From: Certhia americana
Lineage: Eukaryota; Chordata; Aves; Passeriformes; Certhiidae
DNA length: 64,000 nucleotides
Assembly: GCA_018697195.1 (NCBI GenBank)
Contig: CM031860.1
Coordinates: 60,900,509-60,964,508 of the forward strand
Direction of reading: 5' to 3'
Part shown: positions 11,702-30,669 of the stretch, in pieces
How positions within the stretch are numbered: the stretch's first letter is position 1
Layout: each line of letters opens with the position of its first letter
Notes under the pieces: generated by a model
The model's database searches: none
What the model was told of the DNA's origin: nothing
Seen by the model: only the letters and a program-made list of their open reading frames with translations
Translations under genes and position numbers: made by a program

Positions 11702-14700
11702 CTGGGAAGAGACATTGTCCATCAGTCCTAGGACCCCCTCTCAGCTCACCATCCCACTCCTGGGCTGTCCCAGGGCCTGGGACCCCTCGGGATGCTGGCA
11801 GGATACTCACGGTAGAGGCGGTAGGCAGCGAGGACCAGGCTGAGCAGGAGGAGCAGGACACCAGCAGCCAGTGGGATCCAAATCAGGGAACTGCAGGAAC
11901 CTGGAGAGAAGAGAGGACTCAGCATCTGGCACCACCCTACCCCAGCAACTTTGGGGGATGGAGTGTGGGGTGGGGAAGGGAGAAGGGCTAAAGGGAGAAA
12001 GGCAGGTCCTCAGAGGAGGTGGAGGATGTGACAATCACATCCTTTGAAGATATCCTTTGAAGGATGCACTTCACAGAATCACAGAGTGAGTAAAATAGAA
12101 GAGACCACAGTGGGTCACCTGGTCCAGCCTCCCTGTTCAAGCAGGGTCATCCCAGAGCACGTGGCACAGGACTGTGTCCAGGTGGCTCTGGCATATTTTT
12201 GGTAAGGGAGACTTCACAACTTCTCTGGAAAACCTGTTCTGGTGCTCAGTCCCCCTCACAGTAAAAAAGGGAACACAGTAATTGCAGGGAACTTAGCTCT
12301 GAGGGAAACTAAACTGAAATACTGAAATACCTCCTAAACCTGTGGATATTCCTAATCTAAACTGAAATACATCCTAAACCTGTAGATATCCCAAGCAGAA
12401 TCCCTCCTACAGGCAGAAGTCAGCTCTATCCAGAGCTCTGGACCCAGACACCCACTCCTGCAGGGTGCCATTGGGGTGGCCCCCACTCCAGGACAAACCC
12501 CAGCTGAGTCCTGAGGACCCCAAGAGCTCAGCAAACCCCTTCTTCCAGGCAGCCTGAGCTGAGCCATACCTTTCCTGCTGGCAGCTTTTCTTTTGGTTAC
12601 CCATGGCACAGGCTGTTTGGTCAGCAGTGTCTGTGTGGTCTGTGGAGGCAGAGGCAAAGCATCAGCTGGGGGATAAGGAGAAAAAGAGGATGGTCAGTGA
12701 GGCACTCAGTGCAGCAGAGATCTCCAACAGCAGGCAAGAGGGACTGGAAAGTTTGGGCCTTGGAACAAGCCCCAACCAGTGATGCCTGCAAAGGGCTGTG
12801 TCAGAGGGGTGAGCTTTACCTGAGCCTCTTTGGAGTCACAGAAATTAACAAGAACTTTTAAAAGTGTTAATAAAACAATGTACCAGGTAAAGAAGGGGAG
12901 AAGGCTAATGCAGGGAAAACCTCCAAACCTGCCTGAGTGACATTGGCTGCCAAGCATCATCTCACCAGCATCGCACAAAATCAGGGGTAGCAGATTTCAG
13001 TAGCACTGGAATGTTTTAAGGGATCCCTAGATCTTTTCCTTGTTCACATTGCTCCAATCTTTGCCCAACATTCTATATTTTTTTCTGATAAAATGAGGGC
13101 AGGATTTATTATGGTGTATCTGAATTACAACGGAACACATTCATTTCTGAATAAAGTCGGCCAGGAAAATATGCCAGTAGTGTCATTAAATTGCTGCATG
13201 TCTGACTGCTCAAACTGTTCAAATTTATTCAAAATTTTAGGTGATTGAAAACTAATTTTTCCTGTTTCTTTCCAGGGTGTAAATTTCTACAGAAACTGCC
13301 ATTCTTTTACATGAAAAGATGAGACATCCGGGCTCTGGGATTTATCTGGACAACTTCTCCCTTACATTTAATAGACTTAAGAAAAATAAACTTAAAGACA
13401 ATTTGTTTAATCATGAGAACTAAAAGGAAAAAAAAAGAAAAAAGAAAACATCCAGTAAAGCCTGAGTCCTCCCAGAGCACCTGCTGCTATTTACTTTTTA
13501 ATTGGTGTCCTTGATCAAGCTGCATTTCAAGCCTGTTTTTCATGCTTTGCACAGAGATATGTGCCCAGATGTTAAAAAACAATTCTCCTTTATCTTCAAC
13601 CAACTTTTCTCTGAGCCTGCAAGAATCCAAAGGGGATTTCTCATCCAGTTCAAGGTACAGAGTATATTTGCAAAAAACACCCAGAAAAACTGGGACACTG
13701 GGTCTGCTTTAGAGTCAGAAGCTGTAGCAGCATTTCAGTTAAATAAGTTATTTGTATCTTAGTTAAATAAGTTATTTGTCTCCCTAAAAGTCTGCAAAAA
13801 TAGAGGCTGAATCCCACTTCAAATACATTATTTTTTCTGCATCAACTACTGCTCTGTGGTCAAAAGGAAAATGGTCTGAAAAGAGCTTCTTTATGACCCA
13901 GATATCTGTAAAGCCTCTCTCCTCCTATGACACCTGCAGAAAACTGTTATTTCTCTTTGGATCTCCCCTGGGATAGTGAGTAGTGAGTTTTGAGGAATAA
14001 ATCCTGTTTCAGTACTTTTTGTGAAGTGTGGTTTTGGAAGCTGCCATCATATCCACCCCAGAGATGTGAGGGGTGATGCTCTCTGGCCTTGATAATACTC
14101 TTGTCACTTGGAGTGAGGGTAAGGAAGAATTATGGCATGGAAGGACCTGTGAGCTGAGCAGGGCACTCTTCCAGCCTCTCATCCAAAGTACAGCAGGAAA
14201 TGAGAAAAACACAGGGCATGGCAATATCAGATCTTCCCATAGAAATCCTAAAGCCCTAGGACCATTGCTGTGCTCAAGGCATGCCCACAGCAGAGCAGCT
14301 GCTGATGGCAAAAGGACTATCACAGGAGGTTCACCTAAATTTTAGCTATTTTCTGCTTTATCCAGTCTCATGGATCTCTTCAGAAAAACCTCAGAGTCTC
14401 AACATTGCAACTCAAAACTGGGAAAAATCTACCAAAACTAATCACCCCTTTCCCAGAGGACTTCATCACAGCCTACTGGTGGCACATTTTGGAACCCCAA
14501 GGGTGCTACTTACCCACTCTGAGCCGTGTCCCACTGCCCAGGACGAGCTGGGAGGACTGGGAGATGGAGCAGTAGTAGGTGCCACTGTCTGAAGGATGCA
14601 GGTGGCTGATGTGCAGGCTGTAGGAGCTGGGGGACCTCGCCTCATGGACACTAAACTTCTCCTGGCTCACATTTGTGCCATACGTGGCTCTGCCCAGGGT

Positions 14701-17218
14701 GTTGGAAAACACCAGGAACTGGAAATGTTGCCCTTCCTGGCTCCAGCGGTACCAGTACACCCCGGTATGCTCATTCTTCAGCTCACAGAGGATTTCAGTT
14801 TTATTGTTAGTCTGGGTTAGAATATGCTCTGGAGTTTGGGTTAAAAGTAGAGCTGTATAAAGACCTAAGGAAAAAGAGAAATATGCAGTTATTGTTTTAA
14901 TTGCATTGTTTTTCTTTCATGCAAAATACAGATTTTCTTTTTGGGCTTAATAAAATCAAGCAGACACACAGACCAGGGGGGTCATGCAACTGAGAAACAG
15001 GAGTATTTTTATCAGGATGCTCCCATATTCCCTCAGAAGCCTTTTTGGGTATATCCCCAGCTATTGTTTAGGCCAAGCCAAATTATACAGCTAGATTTTT
15101 CTCTGCAATCATCTAGGGAGGAGGCTCACTGGCAGGAAGAAGGACTGAGGGATGATTTTGTGGGTGTCCTCGGGGCTGTATGTGCAGGGAAGAGCATCCC
15201 TGCCTGTTCCTGTGGATGCCCCTCTCCTGCCCCTCCTTACCTTTCTCATTTTACAGACATTTTACCCCTTTTTCAATGAATTTTTTGTGCCTCTTAACTG
15301 ATTTCCCACGTTTTTCTTCTACCGATGCAACCCCGGTAAACATCTCAGGGGCAGAAAAAAAGACCAAAAAATGTACAAAATATCTCAAAATGAGCCAATT
15401 TGATATTAGTTTTCAGACAATAATATTTTTCAAAGGAATCTTGAGACATTCCTGGAGAAGGAGTGTGAGGGGCAGCGGTGGGGTTCAAAGGTTTGGTTTG
15501 GCATCGCATTGCCCTGTTTGGGCTTTGCAGCTTTTGTGGAAATTATCTAAGTCTTGTTTGTCCCAGGCAGATGTGAGGGATGTCTGTGTGAGTGAGGATG
15601 TGTCCTTGTGGAAAGGATAACAGGTAACTTGTGATCCTTGCTGTTCAGCAAACAGTCCTGCAAAGCTGCAGATACTCTGAGATGGAGTGAAAAACAGCCC
15701 TCTGAAGATAAGGATACCCCTGCTACCCCTGTCTCTATCCCAGGCGTGTTTTAAAACCATTCCATAAGCTCAATGATTAATGTTTCTCATCTCTTTTTAC
15801 TTCAAAATCCTGAAGTTGTTTTCAGCAGTTTTTTCAGCCTCATGCAGCCCTGTTAACCCAATGGTGTGGGGATGAGTTGGCATGACCCAAGAACATCTAA
15901 AACCATGAATGTGGCACAAGGTCCTGATGTCTCCTGTGTTCCCAATGTCACAGGCAGAGGAGAGGGCTCTGGTGACTGAGAGGGGTACAGAGCCTTCCTC
16001 TGTCCCCACACCAGTGACCCCCTTGCTGCCAATGCTGCGAAATGCTAACATTGAAATGCCAAAATTCAAGTGCTGCAGAGCAGCTGCAGCATATTGCCAC
16101 ATCCTCTGGCTCTGTGACTACATTAATGTCTCCTTAGTATTAAAATACATAATTTTAAGATTTTAGAGTGTAATTCTCTCAAATTTTGTCCTGGAAAACA
16201 CCTGTGTGGTTTTTTAGGGGATGAAATGTGTGTGGCCATGGCACATGGGGGCTTCAGGGTCTCCTTGAGTGCCCTGAGGTCTGTCTCTGCTGGGCATGGG
16301 AAGCACAACTCTCCATGAAAAAATTTTCCTTGACCTGTTGGAGACACTGTTATGTAAGTCAGAAAAGCTAAGAAGACATTCTGGAAGATCTCAGCTCAGT
16401 GCCAGTGGTTAAGCCAGGAGTTAGCTGGGATGAAGTCAGAGCAGAAAACTCATCCTCAGTCATACCGTCAACCCCAAAACCTCCCTGCTCCCTTTCCTGG
16501 TGTATATCCAGGGGGACCATGGGGAATCACAATGCTTGACCAGACCAGCCTGCAGCACCTTAAAAATGGGAAAAGCAAACTCTCATTTATGAGGTTTTCT
16601 CAGTTTTCCCACCTCACAGATATATGGGTTATCAAAACCTGTAAGGTAGAATGTTTTTATAACACACCAATTCCAGATGTGGCTCTTGGGAAGTACTCAG
16701 TCTTTGGACGATTTAGAAAATTTGACGGGATGTTTTTCATCTTTGTGTTACACAGGCACATAGAGAAGATCTATTTTAACTTCTCCATTAACAGCTTCCT
16801 ACAGTCTATCTGCACTGAGGGTGCAGTAAAAACTCTGTGGAGTCTATATCGTTACGTATTGAAATATGAATAGAATATAGAATGGAACAGAGTAGAATGG
16901 GATAGAACAGAATAGAATAGACTATTTCAGTTGGAAGGAACCCACAGCAACTCACTGGTCCTGCTTCCTGATCAGTTCAGGGCTGACCAAAACCTAAAGC
17001 ATGTTATTAATAGCTTTATCAAAAATTCCTGGGAATAGGTAATAATATCCTGTAGATCTATACTGTGAGGGTACATTTAATCTTCCATCATCCAGCTGCT
17101 GGACTGTGGTGGGGGAGAGGCTCCAGCATGATTTTAGGTGCCCTCAACCCTAAAGAGACGTGTCCCTCTTACCTGGGATCTGGAGGCAGATGCAGAGATG
17201 GAGCCATGTCCGGGCCAT
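11661..17218 (-). CDS. CD8B: CD8 beta chain, complete five-exon gene
   Basis: T-cell surface co-receptor that pairs with CD8 alpha and binds MHC class I on the cytotoxic T-cell membrane. Five coding exons on the minus strand (46, 351, 96, 90 and 41 nt) join in phase 1 throughout to give 207 residues, close to the usual length of about 210. The order is: signal peptide (about 1-18), one V-type Ig domain (about 19-132; Cys42 and Cys114, Trp56, D-S-G-x-Y-Y-C before Cys114, J-like G-S-G-T near 125-128), a short Pro/Thr/Lys stalk (133-166), a transmembrane helix (about 170-192) and a basic tail of about 15 residues. N-glycosylation sequons lie at Asn36 and Asn80. The identification is firm because SMYD1, named for being opposite CD8b, lies divergently upstream. 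CD8A is the only serious alternative; the short stalk and tail without a CxCP Lck-binding motif argue against it. Confidence 0.93.
11811..11900 (-). CDS. CD8B: CD8B exon 4 (transmembrane)
   Basis: The acceptor 'ctcttctctccag' precedes 11900, and a GTGAGT donor follows 11811. The exon encodes Gly-Ser-Cys, then a Leu/Val/Ala-rich helix of about 23 residues, then Y-R-L-Y. Cys167, just outside the membrane, is the best candidate for the interchain disulfide, since the stalk exon encodes no cysteine. Confidence 0.92.
12072..12275 (-). mobile_element. CR1 fragment in CD8B intron 3
   Basis: An antisense CR1 tail. 'cacagaatcacagag' is followed by 'cctggtccagcctccctgtt', 'caagcagggtcatcccagag' and 'aggactgtgtccaggtggct', the standard order for the reverse-complemented element. 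It lies between CD8B exons 3 and 4, in the same direction as the gene. Confidence 0.85.
12309..12393. repeat. Imperfect tandem duplication in CD8B intron 3
   Basis: A segment of about 50 bp containing 'ctaaactgaaatac', 'tcctaaacctgt' and 'gatat' occurs twice in a row. An extra 8-bp 'tgaaatac' is inserted in the first copy. It is intronic and non-coding. Confidence 0.75.
12570..12665 (-). CDS. CD8B: CD8B exon 3 (stalk)
   Basis: The acceptor is 'ccttatcccccag' ending at 12666, and the donor is GTATGG just below 12570. The 32 codons begin A-D-A-L-P-L-P-P and are rich in Thr, Lys and Arg, as in the CD8 beta stalk. A second AG 26 bases inside the exon was discarded because it would leave phase 2, which does not fit exon 4. 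Confidence 0.85.
13737..13783. repeat. Short tandem duplication in CD8B intron 2
   Basis: The 19-bp string 'agttaaataagttatttgt' occurs twice, about 24 bp apart. The intron otherwise shows no gene or mobile element. Confidence 0.8.
14514..14864 (-). CDS. CD8B: CD8B exon 2 (Ig V domain)
   Basis: A polypyrimidine tract and AG precede base 14864, and a perfect GTAAGT donor follows 14514. The translation contains the V-set hallmarks: Cys42, a Y-W-Y-R-W segment, D-S-G-T-Y-Y-C and a G-x-G-T-R-L J-like end. Length is 351 nt, phase 1 to phase 1. Confidence 0.93.
16866..17030 (-). mobile_element. CR1 fragment with expanded GAATA tail, CD8B intron 1
   Basis: An antisense CR1 end ('tttcagttggaaggaaccca' followed by 'gatcagttcagggctgacca' and 'aaacctaaagcatgtt'). 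It is preceded by an expanded array of degenerate (G)AATAGAATA units at about 16,866-16,920, which represents the CR1 terminal microsatellite. Confidence 0.8.
17173..17218 (-). CDS. CD8B: CD8B exon 1 (signal peptide)
   Basis: The ATG (17216-17218) has an excellent Kozak context, gccaccATGG on the minus strand. It opens a hydrophobic leader beginning M-A-R-T-W-L. The exon ends after one base of codon 16 at a GTAAGA donor. The 5' UTR lies just above 17218. Confidence 0.9.
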
Positions 17219-20707: not shown

Positions 20708-20933
20708 TGGTGCAAGCAGAAGTTTAGTGTGAGCCATGACTAATCCTGGACCTCCCCAAACAGATAAGGAGCACTGCAGGTGCTGCCTTGTGATCTCAGA
20801 TTCCCTAATCAGTGTTGAGGAGGATAGGGAAAGACAAGGAAAGTGTCCTTGGGGAGGCAGCACATGGAGGAGGAAAAGCCACCAAGGAAGTAAACACAGG
20901 TGTCACCAGCCCCAAACAACAACCTGCCATGGC

Positions 20934-20940
20934 TATAAAA
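20934..20940 (+). promoter_or_regulatory. TATA box of the 5' LTR
   Basis: TATAAAA sits in the U3-like part of the left LTR, about 425 bp upstream of the gag ATG. Transcription would start near 20,960-20,970. The aligned place in the 3' LTR reads 'atggtaaaaga' and has lost the TATA core. Confidence 0.55.
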
Positions 20941-21054
20941 ATCACAGGGCTGAGACTTCGTGACCACCTTCACCTTAAAGGTGCCAGATCTGCTGGACCA
21001 CTGCAGAGACCATCTCCAAGCTCCTGGGACTACCGGAACATTCAGCTGAGGATT

Positions 21055-21060
21055 GGTGAG
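21055..21060 (+). promoter_or_regulatory. Candidate splice donor for env mRNA
   Basis: G|GTGAG: a donor-like site (exon would end at 21055) in the 11-bp block that is exactly conserved between the LTRs. It is the best donor I see upstream of gag to pair with the acceptor at 26,758. Not proven. Confidence 0.35.
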
Positions 21061-21140
21061 ATCTTATTATTGGGGTCCTACTCTGTCTCTCCTTTGCTTC
21101 ACCCGCTCCCACATCCCTTCCCCGTTCCCTCCCCGGGAGC

Positions 21141-21158
21141 TGGTGGCTCGCAGCAGCT
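21141..21158 (+). other. Possible decayed primer-binding site
   Basis: The first ten bases, TGGTGGCTCG, match nine of ten at the start of the tRNA-Pro primer-binding site usual in gammaretroviruses. The following eight do not match. The position fits the end of an LTR of about 430 bp, whose length also agrees with the 3' LTR once its two insertions are removed. Weak evidence on its own. Confidence 0.3.
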
Positions 21159-21358
21159 GCCGGCTCGGCCGCGGCCTCCTGTTCCCACCTTCCCCTTCCC
21201 TTGTGCCCAGGCTCGGTGTCCCCCCGGGGGCTTTTTGGAGGGGCGGGTTGTGGGGTTGCAGCCTTGCTCTGTGGAGGGGTTGAAGGGATTTTCAGTGCTG
21301 GTGTGTTATGGTAGTTTTGCCCTGAGCCGGAGCCGCCTCTGATCTCGTCCCCTTCACT

Positions 21359-23056
21359 ATGATGAGCGACATCGTTAGCAGTTGGAAGCTGGAGCAGTTT
21401 GTACTCCAGAAGTGTCTCCCCCCAGTTTGGTCACCAGGGTCTTTCCAGGGTCCAGATGCGTATCAGCAGCTGTGCCAGCAGTGGGAGAGCTGGTCGGAGG
21501 AGAACAAAAAGCCCAAACCCACTAACAAGTGTAAGAAACGAGCGGCTTTGCAGGGCTTGCTGATGGTAGGCAGGGAGTTGTCCAGATTGCTGAAGGAGGC
21601 TCTTGAGAATGTGCAGACCTTGGAGCAGACCAAGGAGGAGCTCAAAATCCAGGTGGACAACCTGCGGGCAGAGGTGCAGGGTTTGTGTGGGGACTCTCTG
21701 CGGAGCGCAGTGGAGATCACCCGGCTGGAAAACAAACTGGGCTATGAGAAACTGAAAACAGAGGAGCTGAAGAAGGAGGTTGGCAAGTGGATAGGGGAGA
21801 CCCATGATGCACAGAGTGCAGTGCGGGCAGTCCTGCAGGATGTCCAGCGGGACCGGGGCACTGGCCCTGATCACAAGGTTTGCCATGCCAAGATCCAGGA
21901 GCTGGAGGCAGAGCTTGGGGTGTCAAGGGGCATTGTGGCTGCCATTAAAGGCAAGAGGACCCCGATTGGGAATGGTGAGGGGGAGGATTCCCTGGACCTG
22001 CACCCACCCCACTATGATTATGAGGATGATGTGTGGGGTGCTAATGGCCCCACCAGGCCGTCCCCCTATGCTCCTCTGCGGGAGGAGGTGTGCCAGCTGC
22101 AAGTAGGGGAGGTAGAGGCTTCCAAAGATAAAAAGGTCCCCCACGATGAGCCTGTGAGCCATGTCCCACTCCAGCCCATAGACACCAACAGGGCTGTGCT
22201 CTGGTTTACCCCTGAGCAGCTTAAGACTGTGGGGAAGATGCTGGGGCCACTGACAAAGGAGACAGCAATTAACTGGCTGTCCAGGGTCCAGCGTCTGCCC
22301 AAGTGCCAGAGTGGCAACTTTGTGAGTGACCTGATAGACATTGTGAGAAAGTGCATGAAGCCGGATGATTTTGCAGCACTGCCGGGGGATGTGCAGATGG
22401 GCAATGTCCAGGATATTGGGGATGTCCAGCTGGCTGTGCTGAAGGTGTTCTTCCCAGAGGTCAACCCCTTAGTGCTCTTCCACCAGGAGAAGCAGAACCC
22501 TGAGGAGAGGCCTGATGCCTATGTTAACCGTAAAAAGATGCTCTACCAGATGGCTGGGCTGCCTGGCTCAAAGGACTCCCCCCTCAATTTTGACAGGCCT
22601 GAATTCAAGGAGCCACTGGTGGTGGGACTGACACCACCACTGCGGGTGATTGCTGGTGGGGATGCAGCCAAAAAGCCTCTCTCAGAGCTGGAGCAGATCC
22701 TGAACCAGAATTTTGAGCTACAAAAGCAGGCATTCCCGGGGTACATGTTGGGGGGGAAGAAAGGGAAAACCTTAGCCATGTCTTTCCAAAATGCAGGGAT
22801 GAGAAAAATGCAAGGAGACAACCGAAAAGATCCTGATGGCAAGGGGGGGTTGGGGAAGGAGAATCAGCAAGGGCTGAGGTTTCAGAAGTCTAACCCTTGG
22901 CGGGCTGAGCTGAGGAAGCGCTTGATGAAATACGAGAAACAGGAGGATATTGATGGCTTGCCGGATGCAGAGCTCTTCCAAAAACTGGCCCTGCATGAGA
23001 CCAAAAAGCACAGCAGCTCCCACCCGATTGACCCAGGGTCTAAAGCTCAGCAATAG
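21359..23056 (+). CDS. Retroviral Gag polyprotein, open, 565 aa
   Basis: Structural capsid precursor of the provirus. The first of two adjacent ATGs is taken as start (A at -3). About residues 55-150 are rich in Leu, Glu and Lys in heptad-like order and are probably coiled coil. A P-P-H-Y late-domain motif (PPxY, for ESCRT/NEDD4-type budding) is at 216-219, followed by an acidic D-Y-E-D-D. The capsid part is about 275-475, with an MHR-like segment at about 376-391 (Gln376 to Arg391, with P-x-E and A-Y-x-x-R). The C-terminus is Lys/Arg-rich like a nucleocapsid, but the last 100 or so residues have no cysteine, so there is no CCHC zinc knuckle. It ends at TAG 23054-23056, in frame with pol. No stop or frameshift interrupts it. 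Confidence 0.9.
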   Translation: MMSDIVSSWKLEQFVLQKCLPPVWSPGSFQGPDAYQQLCQQWESWSEENKKPKPTNKCKKRAALQGLLMVGRELSRLLKEALENVQTLEQTKEELKIQVDNLRAEVQGLCGDSLRSAVEITRLENKLGYEKLKTEELKKEVGKWIGETHDAQSAVRAVLQDVQRDRGTGPDHKVCHAKIQELEAELGVSRGIVAAIKGKRTPIGNGEGEDSLDLHPPHYDYEDDVWGANGPTRPSPYAPLREEVCQLQVGEVEASKDKKVPHDEPVSHVPLQPIDTNRAVLWFTPEQLKTVGKMLGPLTKETAINWLSRVQRLPKCQSGNFVSDLIDIVRKCMKPDDFAALPGDVQMGNVQDIGDVQLAVLKVFFPEVNPLVLFHQEKQNPEERPDAYVNRKKMLYQMAGLPGSKDSPLNFDRPEFKEPLVVGLTPPLRVIAGGDAAKKPLSELEQILNQNFELQKQAFPGYMLGGKKGKTLAMSFQNAGMRKMQGDNRKDPDGKGGLGKENQQGLRFQKSNPWRAELRKRLMKYEKQEDIDGLPDAELFQKLALHETKKHSSSHPIDPGSKAQQ

Positions 23057-23118
23057 GGCTGCCAGGCACCTGCATCGCCCCTGTTTGTGGCACCGATTAA
23101 GACCGATTTGTGGGGGCG
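23054..23118 (+). promoter_or_regulatory. Amber readthrough site with candidate hairpin
   Basis: CAA TAG GGC separates gag and pol, which share the same frame, and no stop occurs until the end of pol. Gammaretroviruses translate pol by suppressing an amber codon here, with a purine after TAG and a downstream RNA structure. A GC-only six-base pairing is possible between CGCCCC at 23076-23081 and GGGGCG at 23113-23118. The pairing is my suggestion; the in-frame TAG is directly visible. Confidence 0.6.
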
Positions 23119-26100
23119 CCTGATAGTTGATACAACTATTGGAGGAGGGGTGCTTGGACAAGTGATGTTAATTGATACTGGTGCCACTTATTCAATTCTG
23201 AATATGGCCCCTGGCAGAGCTGGGATCTTCCAAACTACTGAAATTATTGAATTGACAGGGCCAAACGGCCAGAAATCCTCAGTGCCCTTCACAGGGCCCA
23301 TACCCTTTGAAATTGGGGCTGCCAAAGGGTCTGAAAAATTTGGGAAAATGGAAATGAAAGGAAAGCCAGGAATTTTAGCCATCTCTGCACTGACAAATAT
23401 GGGGGTGGTGGTGGACCTGGTAAACCAAGCATTGCTACACTGCCCACAAATTGATTTGCCTGTCATCCCGGCAAGCCACAGGGTGATGTCAGTGAAAGCC
23501 CCTGAGATCCTGGTCCACCCTGAGTGGGAGCCCAGGGTGAAACGGGTCACAGAGAAGTTTCCCCAGGTCTGGGCAAGGAGCAAGCTGGACTGTGGGCAGA
23601 TTGATGCTGCTGTGTCAATCAAGGGGCCAGATCCACCTCCTCAGCTTCAGCCCTGGTACCCGGCTGAGGCTGAGGACAGCTTGTGGGACACAGTCAAAGC
23701 CTTGCTGGACCAGGGCGTGCTGGTGGAGCAGCAGAGCACCACCAATGCCCCAGTGTGGCCCCTGAGGAAAGCCGATGGGAAAACATGGAAGCTGACAGTT
23801 GATTTCAGCACCCTGAACCTAGTCACCCCAATGCAGACCTCCACGGTGGTCAAGTATCCCAATATCATGGCAGCCATCTCCCAGGGGTCCGAGTGGTTCT
23901 CGGTGCTCAGCCTGACCAGCCCATCATTTGCCATCCCCTTGCACCCCGAGTCCTGGCACAAGTTTGCCTTCACGATTCGAGGACGGCAATTTGCTTTCAC
24001 CAGAGTCCCTCCTGGTTTCCACAATGCCCCTGCCATCTGCCATACCCGCGTGGTGAGGATGTGGGAGCAGGTCAGCCACAGGGAGAGCGTGCTGTCCTGT
24101 GCTGGTGATATCCTCATCCACACCCAGACAAAGGAGAAGAACCTGGAGGTACTGGCAGAGGTGCTGGGGGCTGTCCAGAAGACAGGCTTCAGGATCAACC
24201 CCACAAAGGCCCAGCTGTGCTGGAAGGAGGTCTCCTTTGTGGGGGTGACCCTGGGGGAGGAAGGGCGCTCACTGGAAAAGCAGAGGGTTGAGCTAATACA
24301 GAAGATGTCAGCACCGTCTGATGTCACCACCCTGAGGTCCTTCCTGTCTCTCCTGAGGTTGTGCCGTGAATTTATTGAGGGCTATGCAGAGAAAACAGCC
24401 CCCCTTTGCCACCTCCTGAAAAAAAACACCCCCTGGGAATGGGGGCCAGAGCAGGATGAGGCAGTGAAGACCTTAAAGGAGAGTGTGGCACGAGCCCCCA
24501 TGCTGGCACATCCTCGGGGGGACAGACCCTATGTTTTGCAACTGGCCAGCACAGGGAGTGGGCTGCAGGCCACCCTGTGCCAGCAACACAGTGCCAACCT
24601 GCTCACTGTTGCCCATGCCTCACGTCTTCTGACGCCAGTCGAGCAACAGTTCAGTGACTATGAGAGGGAGGTTTTAACCTTAACCTGGGCCCTGCAGCAC
24701 TGGGAGTACCTGTTGGGGTCAGCCCCAGTGCTGCTGAAGACCTCCTGCAACCCGGTGAGGTACTTCTTGTTGGGAAAGGGGGATGAGGGTCCCCTGTGCT
24801 GCCCCAGGATGGCCAACTGGGCGTTGGCACTGCCCAATAAGGAGGTCCCCGGGGACCCCTCACCTGGTGCCTACAGGGTGATAATCAGTGCAGAGAGGGA
24901 TGGGGAAAAACCGGGAGTCTCCCTTACTGACCCCAAGCCATGGCGGGCACCCCTCTTTGAGAGCAGCCTCAGCCTGGAGGAGGCCAAGGCGAGAGGCTAC
25001 GTTGTGTGGTTCGTAGATGGGTCCAACTACCATGAGGAAGGGGTGCCCTACACGGGCTATGCCGCTGTCAACCGGGGCACCGGGGAGGTGGTGAAGGGGA
25101 AGTGCCTGCCTCACTCCATCCAGGCTGCCGAGCTGGTGGCCGTGATGGCTGCCCTGGAAAACACGCCATCAGACCAGCCCCTGGCCATATTTTCAGATTC
25201 GGGTTGGGTGGTGCGTGTGGCACTGGAGTGGCTGCCCCTCTGGAAGGAGAGGGACATGCAGTCTGCTGATGGCAAGCCTGTCACCTATGCCAAAAAGCTG
25301 CTGTACCTTGCGAGGCTAGCAGAGCAGAGGGCATGCCCTGCACAGATCATTAAGGTCAAGGCCCACAAGAAGGAAACAGAGGAAGCGAAGTGGAACAAGG
25401 AGGCAGATGCCAAAGCCAAGCAAGGTGCCAAGGAAGGGCTGATGTGGAAGGCCAGCAAGATATCAGAGAGTGGCCCAGTGTCGGTGGCTCCCAGCAGGCA
25501 CTGGGAGAGTGTGGATCTGGTGGGCTTGCAGGCACAGGACCCCAGGCTCCGTGAGTTAGCGCAGGGCAGGGAGTACAAAGGGTGCAAGGTGTGGAAAGAT
25601 GTCTCAGGGCTGGTGCTGGCACGGAGGGAGGGAGCAGATTTCCCAGTCTGGGTGGTGCCTGAACTAGTCCGGACAGAGCTGGTGGCCCTGGCTCATGAGC
25701 AGGGGCATCTGGGGACAGACAAGACCATGGTTAGGCTGCAGGGTGCTGGGTGGTGGCCTGAAATGAGAGAGGATGTGGAGAGGTATGTCAGCAACTGCCT
25801 GACGTGTGCAGCCAACAATCCTGATGCCAAAACAGCCAAAGCCATCCTGGGTCACCAGAGGGTTTCTGGGCCATGGAGCAAGTTGCAGATGGAGTTTATT
25901 GGCCCTCTGTCCCAAACAGCCCAAGGCAATAAGTACTGCCTAGTGGTGAGTGATATCTTCACCAAGTGGGTGGAAGCATTCCCAGCTCGAAACAACTCCG
26001 CCAGTGCAACTGCCAAGATCCTGGTAGAGCACATCTTCTCACAGTGGGGCATCCCAAAGGAGATCCACTCAGATCATGGCCAACGCTTCATTGGGGAAGT

Positions 26101-26722
26101 CACAAAAGGGGTGTGCCAGGCCCTGGGAATCAAGCAAAAGCTTCACATCACAGGGCATTTCCAGAAGCCACTCTCAGCAGAGGGGCCCAACCAGCCACTG
26201 AAAACAGCATTGAGGAAGCTTGTGAGCCAGCAAAGGAAAGACTGGGATCATAAGCTCCCACTGACCTTGCTGGCACTGAGGGGGTCTCTGGCATCTCAGA
26301 CACTTTCTCCCCCAAAATTTCCTCCCGAAAGAGACCCGAAATTTCTGGAACACTGGTGGCAAGGAGGGGAGCCCCCAGATGAAATGCAGCCCCGTGTGCT
26401 AATGGACAGGTGGGTCCAGGACATGCTGAGGACAGTGTCAGCCACCTACCACCAACTTGCCTCAGTGCAGGAGACCAGCATCCCTAAGATGGATAAGCAG
26501 TTGGGAGTGCTACTGCGCCCCATGGAGTGGAACACGGGAGACCTGGTAATATACCGGGGGGTTAGGGAGAAGAACCAGGTGCTGGAACCCCAGTGGATGG
26601 GGCCTGTTAGGGTTGTGAACAAGGCCAGCCCTTCTGTGTACCAGGTAGAAATCAGAAAAGGGGCAAAGAGGCAGGAGAAATGGTTCCATTCTTCACAATT
26701 AAAAGCATGGAAGGGAAACTAA
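23057..26722 (+). CDS. Retroviral Pol, open frame with a disabled RT site
   Basis: Protease, RT, RNase H and integrase in one frame, made by amber readthrough from gag. Residues are counted from codon 23087. Protease: D-T-G-A with Asp30 present. RT (about 190-480): the motif A aspartate position is Ser275, and motif C reads C-A-G-D at 338-341 where Y-x-D-D is usual, so two of three catalytic acids are missing. RNase H: Asp644, Glu682, Asp704 and Asp774 are all present. Integrase: an HHCC-type zinc region ending in C-L-T-C; the first catalytic acid is Glu936 instead of Asp, then Asp996 and Glu1032 with the canonical 35-residue spacing. The C-terminus has an SH3-like W-F-H-S-S-Q-L-K end. The frame is uninterrupted, so this is not random decay. 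Polymerase activity is unlikely; protease and RNase H could still work. Confidence 0.9.
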   Translation, partial: GCQAPASPLFVAPIKTDLWGRLIVDTTIGGGVLGQVMLIDTGATYSILNMAPGRAGIFQTTEIIELTGPNGQKSSVPFTGPIPFEIGAAKGSEKFGKMEMKGKPGILAISALTNMGVVVDLVNQALLHCPQIDLPVIPASHRVMSVKAPEILVHPEWEPRVKRVTEKFPQVWARSKLDCGQIDAAVSIKGPDPPPQLQPWYPAEAEDSLWDTVKALLDQGVLVEQQSTTNAPVWPLRKADGKTWKLTVDFSTLNLVTPMQTSTVVKYPNIMAAISQGSEWFSVLSLTSPSFAIPLHPESWHKFAFTIRGRQFAFTRVPPGFHNAPAICHTRVVRMWEQVSHRESVLSCAGDILIHTQTKEKNLEVLAEVLGAVQKTGFRINPTKAQLCWKEVSFVGVTLGEEGRSLEKQRVELIQKMSAPSDVTTLRSFLSLLRLCREFIEGYAEKTAPLCHLLKKNTPWEWGPEQDEAVKTLKESVARAPMLAHPRGDRPYVLQLASTGSGLQATLCQQHSANLLTVAHASRLLTPVEQQFSDYEREVLTLTWALQHWEYLLGSAPVLLKTSCNPVRYFLLGKGDEGPLCCPRMANWALALPNKEVPGDPSPGAYRVIISAERDGEKPGVSLTDPKPWRAPLFESSLSLEEAKARGYVVWFVDGSNYHEEGVPYTGYAAVNRGTGEVVKGKCLPHSIQAAELVAVMAALENTPSDQPLAIFSDSGWVVRVALEWLPLWKERDMQSADGKPVTYAKKLLYLARLAEQRACPAQIIKVKAHKKETEEAKWNKEADAKAKQGAKEGLMWKASKISESGPVSVAPSRHWESVDLVGLQAQDPRLRELAQGREYKGCKVWKDVSGLVLARREGADFPVWVVPELVRTELVALAHEQGHLGTDKTMVRLQGAGWWPEMREDVERYVSNCLTCAANNPDAKTAKAILGHQRVSGPWSKLQMEFIGPLSQTAQGNKYCLVVSDIFTKWVEAFPARNNSASATAKILVEHIFSQWGIPKEIHSDHGQRFIGEVTKGVCQALGIKQKLHITGHFQKPLSAEGPNQPLKTALRKLVSQQRKDWDHKLPLTLLALRGSLASQTLSPPKFPPERDPKFLEHWWQGGEPPDEMQPRVLMDRWVQDMLRTVSATYHQLASVQETSIPKMDKQLGVLLRPMEWNTGDLVIYRGVREKNQVLEPQWMGPVRVVNKASPSVYQVEIRKGAKRQEKWFHSSQLKAWKGN

Positions 26723-26744
26723 CGGGGCTGGAGAGCCCGCCTTG

Positions 26745-26758
26745 CTTATGTTTTGCAG
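26745..26758 (+). promoter_or_regulatory. Splice acceptor before env
   Basis: A pyrimidine-rich 'cttatgttttgcag' ends at 26758, ten bases before the env ATG at 26769. The placement suits a singly spliced env mRNA in which the leader is joined just ahead of the start codon. Confidence 0.65.
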
Positions 26759-26768
26759 ATAAAGGAAA

Positions 26769-29393
26769 ATGGAAGGCGATTGTGACCAGCGGGAAGGGCG
26801 AACTTCGTGGCATCACCAGCCCTGTTTGTGCTGCGGGGAAATTGCTTTCAAATTTGTGATTGCAGGATTTACTTTGCTTTCTGGTATGTGCATAGTGCTG
26901 AGCACCCAATGTGTCCAACCAACCCATCAGCACCTTGGACAAAATGTCAATTATTCTCACTTAGAATGGCACCTTGACACACAGGCCACAGCCCAGCACA
27001 GGGTTAGGAGGCACACAAAAATTGGGACTGATTGGCCCTGGTCCCAAGCTTACATAAAACATACAGGAATCATGGGATTAAACTCTAACAAAGGCCTAAA
27101 TTTGTCTACAGTGGTTATGCATGGGGCAGAGGTGTACTTGGAAAATGAGTGGGGCTGGGATAGCACAAACAGACTTCCACAGCTGCTGGGGAAGGTGGGA
27201 CAGCAAATAAAAGTGGGGTGCAGGGTAATTAATGGGTCTACCCACCAGCGAGTAACTCAAATCTCTGTCACTGAAGTAAAAACTAAGAAGAATCAGAAAA
27301 AAATCTGTGCTGTGGAGAAATTGGACTGCTGGTACAATTTTACTTTGGTCCAGCCAGTCTTTGTGGTTTGCCTCTGGGCACACAACAGCATGGGGCTGTC
27401 CTTTAAATTTAAGATCAGCACCACAGCACCCTCCTTTGCTGCCATTAAGATCTCAAAGTGCCATTTTTTGGCCTGGCATGCAGCCCCTTATGTTGAGATT
27501 GGCAACCAGGTAAAACTGGAAATTAAATACTCCCAAGAAAGTGTAGCTGACCCAATGCAAATTAATGGCACCACCGTGACTGTCACAGCCCCCAATGGCC
27601 GCAAATGGCTCATTCCATTGACCTGCCTCTGTGAGAGAAAAACACTTGATAGATCTGAACTAGATGCAGAGGCTTCATGGTATAATCAGGATTATGGACG
27701 CTGCCCACACCTTATCATAACCCTGCAGGTGTGGTGTCAAGGAAACCTGAGCGTAGAAATGTCCCCCGAGCTTGGAGGAAAGTGGTGGATAGGAGGCCCC
27801 GAAGGATTCAAAAAAGAATTTGTCATCACTGCTGTCTTGGCCCCTTTTGTTTCCAAAATAGGTCCTTATGTAGTGAAGAAAAATCACATCCAAGAGCTGC
27901 TGACAGGGCCTGTACGATCACTAAAGAAGGTGGTGCTGTCTCTGTCCACTGTTAATATTTCCTCTGTCAGACCACACTGTGCCCCCTTCCTGTCCACTCT
28001 GCACACTGGCTGGCTGGCATGGCTCCACAGCCGCTCCCTCCAGGGCACAAGGGCCAGGAGAGACCTGCTGGCCACAGCACTGGGAGGAGGAGGTGCCGGC
28101 CTGGGAGTCCTCAACAGCATGAATGCTGAGGTCTTGGCAAACAAGCTGGAGACTGTCACCTGGGGCGTGCAGAACCTCCTCAAGCCCCTGAATTCATCCC
28201 TGTCCAGCCTTGGGATGGGGCACTGGCTTGTGTCAGAGGTGCTGCCCACCTGGGAACAAATAAGTGAGAAAGACCATCAGGTGCTGTTGCGAGCGCTGGG
28301 CATCGAACAAAATAACGTCTCTCTTGCTCTTAGCTGCATCCAAGCCCAGATGTGGGTGCAGAGTGTCGTTGCAGGCATCCTGAGAGATGGTGACAATGGC
28401 GTCCTGCCCACTGAGATCCGAAAGATCGTGTGGGACACGGCCACAGAGAAGGAGCGGCAGCTCCAAGCCTGGTGGAGGCTTGTAAACTTCACCCATGACC
28501 AGGCCCTCAACGCAGTCATTGCCCACGTCCTCACTGTGGCAGAGGCTCGCATTGAAAAGGTCTATCCCATCGTGGCCCTGGGGGTGAACACAAATGGGTC
28601 TGTGGTCTACCCCCTGGACCATCGCATGTGGGCCAGGGTGTCTGATGGGAAGTGGGAGACGGTAGATTTGGAAGCCTGCATTTTGGAGAGGGGGCTGGGA
28701 TTCATATGCGAAGATGATGCCCTTAAGGCGAGTGATGTGTGCTTTGACACCAAAGAAGGCGTGTGTCACTTTGAGATCAACCCCCAGAGCAGTAACAAAA
28801 CCGTGTTAGTGTACGTAGGGAAAGGCTGTGTGTGCTTCAGAACAATGTGTAAATACGTGCAAATTAATGAAGCTTATAACCAGACCGTGTTTAGCGACTC
28901 AAATATGTGTGCTTGCAATGTAGCTATTATTAGAGGCTGTGATTTTGTGTATAAACCACCTGTGTTTACTAGCCAGTTGCTGATCAGAAACTATACCTTG
29001 TATCGTAGTATAACCCCGACCCCCATCGGTATGGATTTATCACTTGTAAAAGAAATGTTAGAGCATGTAAATTTGCAGCAGCTGCTAGAAAATGCCAAGG
29101 CCGAAGCTAAAAAGATCTTAATAACAGTCCACCATGATGGCAAAGTTATAAAACAGGTAATGGAACGAATTAAGAGGGCGGGAGAGCACCACTGGTGGGA
29201 AGTATTTTTTGGCTGGTCCCCCACGGCCACTGGCATTTTCAACGCACTGCTGCACCCCATTGTAGTTATACTGCTAATGCAAATCTGTGTGTGCTTTGCC
29301 ATGGTAGCCACTTGTTACCGGATGAGGCAAGTGAAGCTCTGCTTTGATAGCCAGTTGAAAGGAGCAGGGCTGGCCAGGACCCTCCTGAAATAG
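26769..29393 (+). CDS. Retroviral envelope glycoprotein, open, 874 aa
   Basis: Surface and transmembrane envelope precursor. The ATG has a good context (A at -3, G at +4) and lies 47 nt after the pol stop, behind a splice acceptor. A hydrophobic signal segment is at about 27-45. A furin-type R-A-R-R lies at 428-431, giving a SU of about 431 and a TM of about 443 residues. A Gly/Ala/Leu-rich stretch follows at once (about 433-455) and looks like a fusion peptide. About a dozen N-glycosylation sequons are spread over both subunits. The membrane anchor is at about 822-849, with a cytoplasmic tail of about 25 residues. The TM ectodomain is long and has a Cys-rich distal part, but I do not see the CX6CC motif of gamma-type Envs, so its class is unusual. 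No stop or frameshift is present. Fusion ability cannot be judged here. Confidence 0.9.
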   Translation: MEGDCDQREGRTSWHHQPCLCCGEIAFKFVIAGFTLLSGMCIVLSTQCVQPTHQHLGQNVNYSHLEWHLDTQATAQHRVRRHTKIGTDWPWSQAYIKHTGIMGLNSNKGLNLSTVVMHGAEVYLENEWGWDSTNRLPQLLGKVGQQIKVGCRVINGSTHQRVTQISVTEVKTKKNQKKICAVEKLDCWYNFTLVQPVFVVCLWAHNSMGLSFKFKISTTAPSFAAIKISKCHFLAWHAAPYVEIGNQVKLEIKYSQESVADPMQINGTTVTVTAPNGRKWLIPLTCLCERKTLDRSELDAEASWYNQDYGRCPHLIITLQVWCQGNLSVEMSPELGGKWWIGGPEGFKKEFVITAVLAPFVSKIGPYVVKKNHIQELLTGPVRSLKKVVLSLSTVNISSVRPHCAPFLSTLHTGWLAWLHSRSLQGTRARRDLLATALGGGGAGLGVLNSMNAEVLANKLETVTWGVQNLLKPLNSSLSSLGMGHWLVSEVLPTWEQISEKDHQVLLRALGIEQNNVSLALSCIQAQMWVQSVVAGILRDGDNGVLPTEIRKIVWDTATEKERQLQAWWRLVNFTHDQALNAVIAHVLTVAEARIEKVYPIVALGVNTNGSVVYPLDHRMWARVSDGKWETVDLEACILERGLGFICEDDALKASDVCFDTKEGVCHFEINPQSSNKTVLVYVGKGCVCFRTMCKYVQINEAYNQTVFSDSNMCACNVAIIRGCDFVYKPPVFTSQLLIRNYTLYRSITPTPIGMDLSLVKEMLEHVNLQQLLENAKAEAKKILITVHHDGKVIKQVMERIKRAGEHHWWEVFFGWSPTATGIFNALLHPIVVILLMQICVCFAMVATCYRMRQVKLCFDSQLKGAGLARTLLK

Positions 29394-29550
29394 TCAAGGG
29401 CAAGACTGGGTTGGCCTCTGTGTTTGCCACCAAGAAGATCCTTTGGCTCCGCTGTTGGCTGCAACCCAGTAGGCGTTGAGCGGTGGGGACGCACGCCATG
29501 CCAGACCTTGATGAGATGGATGGCCTTCTCCATTACCAGAGGGCCACCCA

Positions 29551-29562
29551 GGAGGGGAGGAC
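29551..29562 (+). other. Candidate polypurine tract
   Basis: GGAGGGGAGGAC, nearly all purine, lies directly before 'tggccaagcag', the point where similarity to the left end of the 5' LTR starts. That is the expected site of the plus-strand primer. Confidence 0.5.
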
Positions 29563-29587
29563 TGGCCAAGCAGCCTGCAGATGGCAT

Positions 29588-29795
29588 GAGTCACAGAATG
29601 GTTGAGGTTGGAAGGGACCTCTTGAGAGGTTTCATTTAGTCTGAGTCCACCTGCTCAAGCAGGGACACCTAGAGCAGATTGCCTAGGACTGTGTTCAGCT
29701 GGGCTTTGACCATCTCCACAGATGGAGACTCCACAACCTCTCCGGGCAAACCTGTTTCATTGTTTGATCACCCTCATAGTGAAGAAGCAAAAGTT
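29588..29795 (-). mobile_element. CR1 fragment inside the 3' LTR
   Basis: A classic antisense CR1 tail: 'cacagaatggttgaggttgg', 'aagggacct', 'ccacctgctcaagcagggac', 'aggactgtgttcagctgggc', 'ccacagatggagactccaca' and 'gatcaccctcatagtgaaga'. It splits the left part of the provirus 3' LTR and so came after the provirus. Confidence 0.85.
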
Positions 29796-29877
29796 AGCAT
29801 AAGTAACTTGTTTTTGAACTTCCCATCCCCAAATACTAATGTTAAGAGGCTGCTCTTATGTGATTTAAGAGTCCTTA

Positions 29878-30314
29878 TGATGCCTGTGAGAGGCTACCTG
29901 GAACAGAGGCTGGACAATGTTAAAGGAATAAAGTAGGTATTTATTGAAAGGCCTTCCAAGGATACACCTTGGGCAGTACAAGAGCCTGGCTGAGGCTACA
30001 CCCAAGATGGACCTCGAGTCATGAGTTTTCACACTTTTGTAAATTTTGGTCCATTTACATGTTGGGGTTAATTGTCCAACTACAGCTCCAGGTCATGAAG
30101 TCCCATCCTCCCAGATTGCTTTCCTCTCACCGTTGTTTGTACTTCTTAAGCCTAAAGCTGCAATGGTGTCCTTGGTTCTGGGGCTGGAAAAGGATTGTTT
30201 TGTGACTGAACTGTGAGGAGAACTTGCCAACACTTTATATGAAGTTCAGAGTTACATACTAATGCAGTATGTATTAGAATCTGGAAAATACGAAAGCTAA
30301 AACTTAAGGCATCA
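29878..30314 (-). mobile_element. Solo LTR, 437 bp, nested in the 3' LTR
   Basis: It is bounded by perfect 7-bp inverted ends, TGATGCC at 29878-29884 and GGCATCA at 30308-30314, and flanked by a 4-bp direct repeat CTTA (29874-29877 and 30315-30318). Its interior, such as 'aggtatttattgaaaggcct' and 'ttgggcagtacaagagcctg', resembles LTRs I recall as abundant in passerines. It is probably in minus orientation, since 'tttattcc' near its left end would carry AATAAA on that strand's sense. The 4-bp duplication fits a gamma-like ERV class. Confidence 0.82.
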
Positions 30315-30648
30315 CTTAAACCAGGGAGATGGGGGTAAGGAAAGCCAAGGACACTGTCTTTGGAAGGAAAGAGAAGGAAATGTAACACCTGAGCTTGGAA
30401 AAGCATCCATTGAAGACAGCAGGGGTGTGAACAGCCTCAAAGACTTGGAAAGATGGTAAAAGATCAGCAGAACAGAAGATGCTGTAATCACCATGGACTT
30501 TAAGGAGCTAAATCCACATGAGCCTTTGCAGCACCACATCCAGGTTCCCAGGACTCCCAGCACGTCTGGCCAACGGATTGGTGAGGTCTTGTTTTTGGAG
30601 CCTGGACATCACTGCTTTGCTGTGCTTTTATTAGTTGTATATGTAGTC

Positions 30649-30654
30649 AATAAA
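30649..30654 (+). terminator. Polyadenylation signal of the 3' LTR
   Basis: AATAAA, followed within about 10 bases by 'tgtgtctgtt', a GT-rich stretch of the downstream-element type. It is about 70 bp past the conserved 'ggattggtgag' block. No AATAAA exists at the same place in the 5' LTR. Confidence 0.55.
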
Positions 30655-30669
30655 TGTGTCTGTTAGAGA

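What the first reader, a model, noticed from the sequence alone, without database searches (positions are those of the whole stretch)
20708..30668. Retrovirus with decayed LTRs but three intact large genes: likely co-opted by the host
The LTRs share ordered blocks but differ at perhaps a third or more of positions by eye, and the 3' LTR carries a CR1 fragment and a nested solo LTR. That marks an old insertion. Over the same time gag (565), pol (about 1,222) and env (874 codons) kept about 2,660 codons free of stops or frameshifts. Neutral decay would be expected to hit all parts alike. Open frames between decayed ends are the signature of purifying selection on a domesticated provirus. Most known co-opted elements keep only env or gag; keeping all three is rare.
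Basis: partly seen in the sequence, partly recalled or inferred. Interest (0 to 1): 0.93.

Follow-up and report, generated by a model that had tools for sequence, protein, structure and literature searches.

The report
Ovex1, an ancient domesticated bird retrovirus
This is a songbird's copy of Ovex1, an already published old retrovirus that can probably no longer copy itself but whose three genes have stayed open over much of bird history; what it does for the bird is still unknown.

Summary
Observation and reading are both right, but the locus is already known: it is Ovex1, described in chicken and zebra finch in 2009 between CD8 and SMYD1 and called co-opted in 2016. Gag (565 codons), pol (1221) and env (874) are open. 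The LTR remnants agree at 150 of 221 aligned bases; a neutral simulation at that divergence gives about 50 stop codons where none is seen. No close second copy was found of gag, PR-RT or the 5' LTR. Additions: orthologous proteins in kiwi (env) and ostrich (pol), so it probably predates crown birds. In 16 of 16 orthologous pol proteins (6 from named birds, 10 from unnamed sources) RT has lost two catalytic aspartates and integrase its first; a turtle relative keeps all three. The four RNase H catalytic residues are kept in 16, 16, 15 and 16 of 16. Relative to the turtle yardstick, PR, RNase H and the integrase zinc domain vary about half as much as RT. Function is not shown, and dN/dS was not computed here because no DNA from another bird was available.

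The parts
20872..21098 (+). 5' LTR remnant (core of the aligned block; a weaker block starts at 20817); TATA-like TATAAAAA at 20934-20941
21056..21057 (+). probable splice donor (G|GTGAGA), inside the LTR repeat and in its best-kept stretch
   Evidence: the 2009 paper reports a conserved donor region
21359..23056 (+). gag, 565 codons, ending in amber TAG (23054-23056)
23057..26722 (+). pro-pol, 1221 codons, in frame after the gag amber codon
23138..23416 (+). protease domain (approximate): DTG kept, G-R-D/N-type motif lost
23657..24256 (+). reverse transcriptase domain (approximate): two of three catalytic Asp lost
24992..25441 (+). RNase H domain (approximate): D, E, D, D kept
25604..25846 (+). 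integrase zinc-binding domain (approximate): H, H, C, C kept
25859..26311 (+). integrase core (approximate): first catalytic Asp replaced by Glu
26757..26758 (+). probable splice acceptor AG, 10 bases before the env ATG
   Evidence: 11 bp in chicken per the paper
26769..29393 (+). env (ORF3), 874 codons; R-x-[RK]-R sites at residues 78-81 and 428-431
29594..29787 (-). CR1-like fragment in the 3' UTR
   Evidence: antisense CR1-Y4 in the 3' UTR of chicken and zebra finch per the paper
29878..30314 (.). nested solo LTR with 7-base inverted ends; CTTA duplication at 29874-29877 and 30315-30318
30397..30621 (+). 3' LTR remnant; AATAAA at 30649-30654
14509..14916 (-). flank: Ig V-set exon, CD8 beta-like
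62314..62517 (+). flank: SMYD1 MYND exon

Best explanation
The locus is the orthologue of Ovex1: a single provirus, probably fixed before the split of living birds, and domesticated as a host gene cluster. Shown here or in print: three open frames; decayed LTRs; loss of catalytic residues of RT and integrase in all orthologues seen, ostrich included; continued protein conservation; and, in chicken, a full-length and a singly spliced RNA in ovarian supporting cells. Inferred: the element can no longer replicate; the LTR-derived promoter drives gag (and some gag-pol by reading the amber codon) and a spliced env RNA; Gag and Gag-Pol act as assembled or nucleic-acid-handling proteins, and Env is a furin-cleaved surface glycoprotein. 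The benefit I think most likely (about 0.35) is restraint of related retroviruses in the gonad, Env by occupying a receptor and Gag by interfering with assembly. The confidence given is for 'Ovex1, domesticated, replication-dead', not for that function.
For: Identity with Ovex1: gag 565 aa, ORF3 873/874 aa, amber between gag and pol, CD8-SMYD1 position, CR1 in the 3' UTR, acceptor just before ORF3, same RT and IN losses. Selection: 0 stops against about 50 expected; 7 gag orthologues at 82-97% identity, 2 of them from named birds and 5 from unnamed sources; kiwi and chicken env both 83%, ostrich pol 81%, where the simulated identity of neutral copies at the LTR distance is 0.45. Published dN/dS 0.08-0.18. 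No close second copy: one gag match in the genome, next PR-RT relative 31% identical, one 5' LTR match (a search too blunt to find the 3' LTR remnant). In-genome comparison: of 54 other env-like rows 42 carry at least one stop and none spans the whole protein (52 of 411 candidates scored, ages of the copies unknown). Targets for restraint: those relatives are numerous in this genome, and long relatives occur in stork, penguin, gull, hawk and others.
Against: No translation, expression or function was measured here. Twelve of the 54 env-like rows are free of stops, so open env frames are not by themselves unusual in this genome. Readthrough of the gag stop has no structural support: the downstream RNA folds no better than shuffles (z 0.26, 112 of 200 at least as well; pseudoknots not tested). 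The protease lost its G-R-D/N-type motif, so processing may be dead too. The 2016 paper reports transcript models in ten adult chicken tissues, which fits a purely gonadal role poorly, and slightly divergent duplicate proteins in three birds, which I did not check. Env differs from its relatives by an extra leader and an extra SU block, which could mean that it no longer binds their receptor. Gag in kiwi or ostrich was not seen.
Confidence: 0.93

Rival explanations
1. Ovex1 serves ovarian development rather than defence: Env or Gag works in adhesion, signalling or nuclear regulation in granulosa-lineage cells.
For: Left-right and sex-specific expression in chicken gonads, and nuclear localisation and leucine-zipper motifs in Gag, all from the 2009 paper; both R-x-[RK]-R sites of Env are conserved.
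Against: Transcript models in ten adult chicken tissues (2016 paper); the 2009 authors note that embryonic ovary differentiation does not seem to involve cell fusion.
Confidence: 0.3
2. Pol is kept for a nuclease: RT and integrase died, but RNase H (and perhaps protease) stayed useful, so Gag-Pol handles RNA-DNA hybrids.
For: RNase H D, E, D, D kept in 16, 16, 15 and 16 of 16 orthologues, and in 6 of 6 from named birds; difference among orthologues divided by difference from the turtle is 0.18 for protease, 0.20 for RNase H, 0.18 for the zinc domain against 0.36 for RT, permutation p 0.0002 each, the floor of 5000 permutations, stable to leaving out each protein; ostrich is 94.0% identical to the window in RNase H and 76.5% in RT.
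Against: Without the turtle yardstick the contrast is weaker: mean pairwise difference is 0.166 (0.141-0.194) for RT, 0.116 (0.088-0.147) for RNase H and 0.122 (0.085-0.161) for protease, with overlapping intervals, so part of the ratio comes from an RT that is better conserved against the turtle. One orthologue has lost the third RNase H Asp. The protease motif loss argues against a whole active Gag-Pol. Conservation may be structural, as the zinc domain is equally conserved beside a broken integrase core.
Confidence: 0.2
3. Only one product is selected and the other two frames survive by chance or linkage.
For: Known co-opted elements usually keep one gene (recalled).
Against: All three proteins are conserved in other birds, and about 50 stops would be expected; published dN/dS is low in all three.
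Confidence: 0.04
4. A young, ordinary provirus.
For: Three open frames.
Against: 32% LTR mismatch, RT and integrase catalytic residues lost, no close second copy found of gag or PR-RT, orthologous proteins in kiwi and ostrich.
Confidence: 0.01

Closest known systems
Ovex1 of chicken and zebra finch (Carre-Eusebe et al. 2009, PMC2717909)
   Same: Position between CD8 and SMYD1, three ORFs of the same or nearly the same lengths, amber between gag and pol, degenerate repeats, CR1 in the 3' UTR, two RT aspartates and the first integrase aspartate lost
   Different: The window species is probably another songbird (gag 97% to Cyanistes; env grouped with three oscines); the LTR match is longer than the 120-122 bp reported in chicken; a solo LTR is nested in the 3' part, which the passages and sections I read do not mention
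Env-bearing bird ERVs (P0039-P0061 and others; 54 rows in the own genome)
   Same: Env 35-55% identical; furin-type site and GLGVLN stretch in most of the 16 relatives aligned
   Different: Multi-copy; PR-RT only 28-31% identical where it lies beside such an env; most lack the Ovex1 leader (1-90) and SU 225-358
Turtle ERV pol, Emydura (P0081)
   Same: Pol 43% identical over 97% of the query
   Different: The RT and integrase catalytic residues compared are intact; not shown to be at the same locus
CrocERV37-39 and tuatara SpeV
   Same: Grouped with Ovex1 in published trees
   Different: Not compared here

Membership tests
Ovex1 orthologue | Lies between CD8 and SMYD1 | tested here: met
   V-set exon with CD8 beta among its PDB matches on one side, SMYD1 exon on the other
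Ovex1 orthologue | Gag 565 aa, amber, in-frame pro-pol, separate ORF3 of 873-874 aa | tested here: met
   published lengths
Ovex1 orthologue | Two of three RT catalytic Asp and the first IN Asp lost | tested here: met
Ovex1 orthologue | Gag-pol in single copy | tested here: met
   gag one match; next PR-RT relative 31%; RNase H-integrase part not searched
Ovex1 orthologue | Protein groups with bird Ovex1 apart from other ERVs | tested here: met
   100/100 branch for the 11 Ovex1 env rows (window and 10 of 27 orthologue-level hits) against 4 relatives
Co-opted host gene | Frames kept beyond neutral expectation across species | tested here: met
Co-opted host gene | dN/dS below 1 | not tested
   Viral contigs gave no DNA relative and the own genome has no relatives held; published values 0.08-0.18
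Co-opted host gene | Loss of the locus harms the host | not testable with these tools
   needs gene removal
Replication-competent ERV | Near-identical LTRs and intact RT and IN catalytic residues | tested here: not met
Retroviral Env | SU-TM cleavage site and homology to ERV Env | tested here: met
   R-x-[RK]-R at residues 428-431 in 14 of 14 aligned rows (window and 13 of 27 orthologue-level hits); ERV env relatives
Retroviral Env | Fold or profile of a known Env class | tested here: inconclusive
   models too poor: mean pLDDT 41.2 and 39.6; no Pfam family in the window's env; six families matched one of 30 members each, best E 0.0029, none an Env family

The most novel reading that the evidence does not exclude
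In Ovex1 birds tamed a whole retroviral Gag-Pol after its copying function died: the RT active site and the integrase core were lost before living birds diverged, and selection then moved to RNase H, the protease fold and the integrase zinc domain, so the locus would supply a host-controlled retroviral RNase H in Gag-made complexes, beside a furin-processed Env.
Probability: 0.2. Interest if true: 0.75.

Novelty: already known. Interest (0 to 1): 0.36.

Why it matters
A provirus with all three genes kept over deep bird splits is rare, and this one was already published. The added facts make its open function more testable: the replication enzymes had lost catalytic residues before ostrich split off while RNase H stayed intact, which says which proteins and which domains to assay first.

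Tried and rejected
Young provirus: rejected. Pigeon P0062 (47% over pol, 53% over part of env) looked at first like a separate element; its alignment shows a gene model with pieces cut out of the Ovex1 orthologue, so it was dropped as a relative. Readthrough hairpin after the gag stop: not better than shuffles. Target-site duplication of the provirus: none found. Env fold: the AlphaFold models of Env and of its TM part were poor, and the Foldseek matches of the first are not interpretable (query TM-score at most 0.13 in the 50 rows shown); the second model was not searched. A spumavirus-like reading of Env (leader, two furin sites) was considered but no fold or profile supports it; Ovex1's own PR-RT matches MLV RT best in the PDB, while the RT beside one env relative, P0047, matches foamy virus best. 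DNA orthologues in viral contigs: none. Homologue searches scored only about 8,000 candidates each, so absence of further relatives means little. In one search the Willisornis row was cut badly and filled only 44% of columns, so its place in that tree is not used. In one search I translated a pol piece in the wrong frame; one search replaces it. The 5' LTR search of the own genome did not find the 3' LTR remnant, so it only speaks against close copies.

Literature: the RNase H co-option search listed two papers, neither on point by title. I saw no report of kiwi or ostrich orthologues, but that rests only on the Ovex1 searches and on the parts read: for the 2009 paper abstract, passages and sections 8, 19 and 21; for the 2016 paper passages; passages of four others; the rest as listings.
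Full report
Observation. The three frames are at the stated places and open: gag 21359-23056 (565 codons), pol 23057-26722 (1221 codons stop to stop), env 26769-29393 (874 codons). Pfam finds RT, RNase H-like, RNase H, integrase zinc and integrase core domains above their cut-offs in pol, and nothing above cut-off in gag or env. The LTR remnants align over 20872-21098 and 30397-30621 with 150 identities and 71 mismatches, far above 200 shuffles (39 against a maximum of 17). A solo LTR with 7-base inverted ends and a CTTA duplication lies at 29878-30314, and a CR1-like piece at 29594-29787. The neighbours are a CD8 beta-like exon and a SMYD1 exon.

It is Ovex1. The 2009 paper (abstract, passages and sections 8, 19 and 21 read) describes an ERV with Gag of 565 aa, an amber codon, pro-pol, and ORF3 of 873 (chicken) or 874 aa (zebra finch), between CD8 and SMYD1 in both birds, with a CR1 piece in the 3' UTR, degenerate 120-122 base repeats, two RT aspartates and the first integrase aspartate lost, and dN/dS of 0.08, 0.18 and 0.16. 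The 2016 paper (passages only) calls it co-opted and reports broad expression. The window matches the features that I could test. The best gag match is from Cyanistes at 97%, and env groups with three oscines (100/99), so the window is probably from a songbird.

Selection. At the LTR distance (JC 0.42), neutral evolution along one lineage would be expected to give about 50 stops in the three frames; there are none. The distance may be too small, because the alignment is local and some LTR sites may be constrained. Seven gag orthologues (2 from named birds, 5 from unnamed sources) are 82-97% identical. Env is 83% identical in kiwi and in chicken, and pol is 81% identical in ostrich over 91% of its length. 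The kiwi and ostrich genes lie on contigs of about 88 Mb, near the 91 Mb contig of the chicken gene; that they sit at the same locus is inferred, not tested, and gag was not seen in either. In the trees (a chosen 15 env rows and 12 pol rows) the 11 Ovex1 env rows form one group apart from four other ERV envs, and ostrich branches first in pol, as vertical descent predicts; many inner forks are unresolved, kiwi's included. In the same genome gag has a single match, the next PR-RT relative is 31% identical, and the 5' LTR has one match in a search that missed the 3' remnant. Env has 54 further rows at 35-55% identity: 42 with at least one stop, 12 without, none spanning the protein (only 52 of 411 candidates were scored).

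What died and what was kept. The turtle relative keeps all the residues compared. In 16 of 16 orthologous pol proteins (6 from named birds, 10 from unnamed sources) the first RT aspartate and the first YxDD aspartate are lost, and the first integrase aspartate is Glu. RNase H D, E, D, D is kept in 16, 16, 15 and 16 of 16; the protease Asp in 13 of 13 with coverage (one of these reads DIG; ostrich is not covered); the zinc ligands in 16 of 16 each. The protease G-R-D/N-type motif is lost in the window and in the 14 orthologues that cover it (the 2009 paper says the same for chicken). Mean pairwise difference among the 17 sequences divided by difference from the turtle is 0.36 for RT and 0.36 for the connection, against 0.18 for protease, 0.20 for RNase H, 0.18 for the zinc domain, 0.25 for the integrase core and 0.29 for its end (protease 0.19 and connection 0.35 in the recount). 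Permuting sites gives p 0.0002 (the floor) for RT against protease, RNase H and zinc, 0.016 against the core, 0.89 against the connection. Leaving out any one protein hardly changes this. Without the turtle yardstick the intervals of RT (0.141-0.194) and of RNase H (0.088-0.147) and protease (0.085-0.161) overlap. Sites are not independent and there is a single outgroup, so I read this as a shift of constraint, not as proof of activity.

Env. Both R-x-[RK]-R sites are conserved: the first in 12 of 12 rows that cover it, the second in 14 of 14 (window and 13 of 27 orthologue-level hits). Most of the 16 relatives aligned have a basic site there and the following GLGVLN stretch, but most lack residues 1-90 and about 225-358. 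Some relatives lie a few kb from PR-RT genes only 28-31% identical to that of Ovex1 (for example contigs 225, 203, 274, 278 and 338). An Env closer than the RT fits the 2009 suggestion that Ovex1 is a recombinant, though decay of the Ovex1 RT would push the same way.

How it works. LTR-derived promoter and donor (TATA-like at 20934, donor at 21056) and an acceptor at 26757-26758 would give the two RNAs reported in chicken. Beyond that, function is inference. I put restraint of related retroviruses first (about 0.35), a developmental role in the ovary next (0.3) and a kept nuclease third (0.2); these are not exclusive.

Verdict. The additions are depth in time, the order of loss, and the pattern of constraint.

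Noticed in passing
own genome G000, contig C27 and small contigs: 29 of the 54 env-like rows other than Ovex1 lie on contig C27, rich in ERVs, which may be the W chromosome (inferred, not tested); 12 of 54 rows have no stop.
   Followed up: partly
29878-30314: Solo LTR with a 4-base duplication nested in the 3' part of Ovex1; whether other copies or other birds share it is unknown because the genome search for it did not complete.
   Followed up: partly
12132-12269 and 57586-57637: Further stretches in the window that resemble the CR1-like repeat of the Ovex1 3' UTR.
   Followed up: no
P0074 (Heliangelus) and P0072 (unnamed source): Single orthologues with a changed protease DTG (DIG) and a changed third RNase H Asp: possible local relaxation or sequence error.
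   Followed up: no
public gene models (P0067, P0074, P0078-P0080, P0062): Ovex1 pol is annotated as 'NYNRIN-like' in five named birds, and in pigeon one model runs through pol and env with pieces cut out; both look like naming or modelling artefacts.
   Followed up: partly
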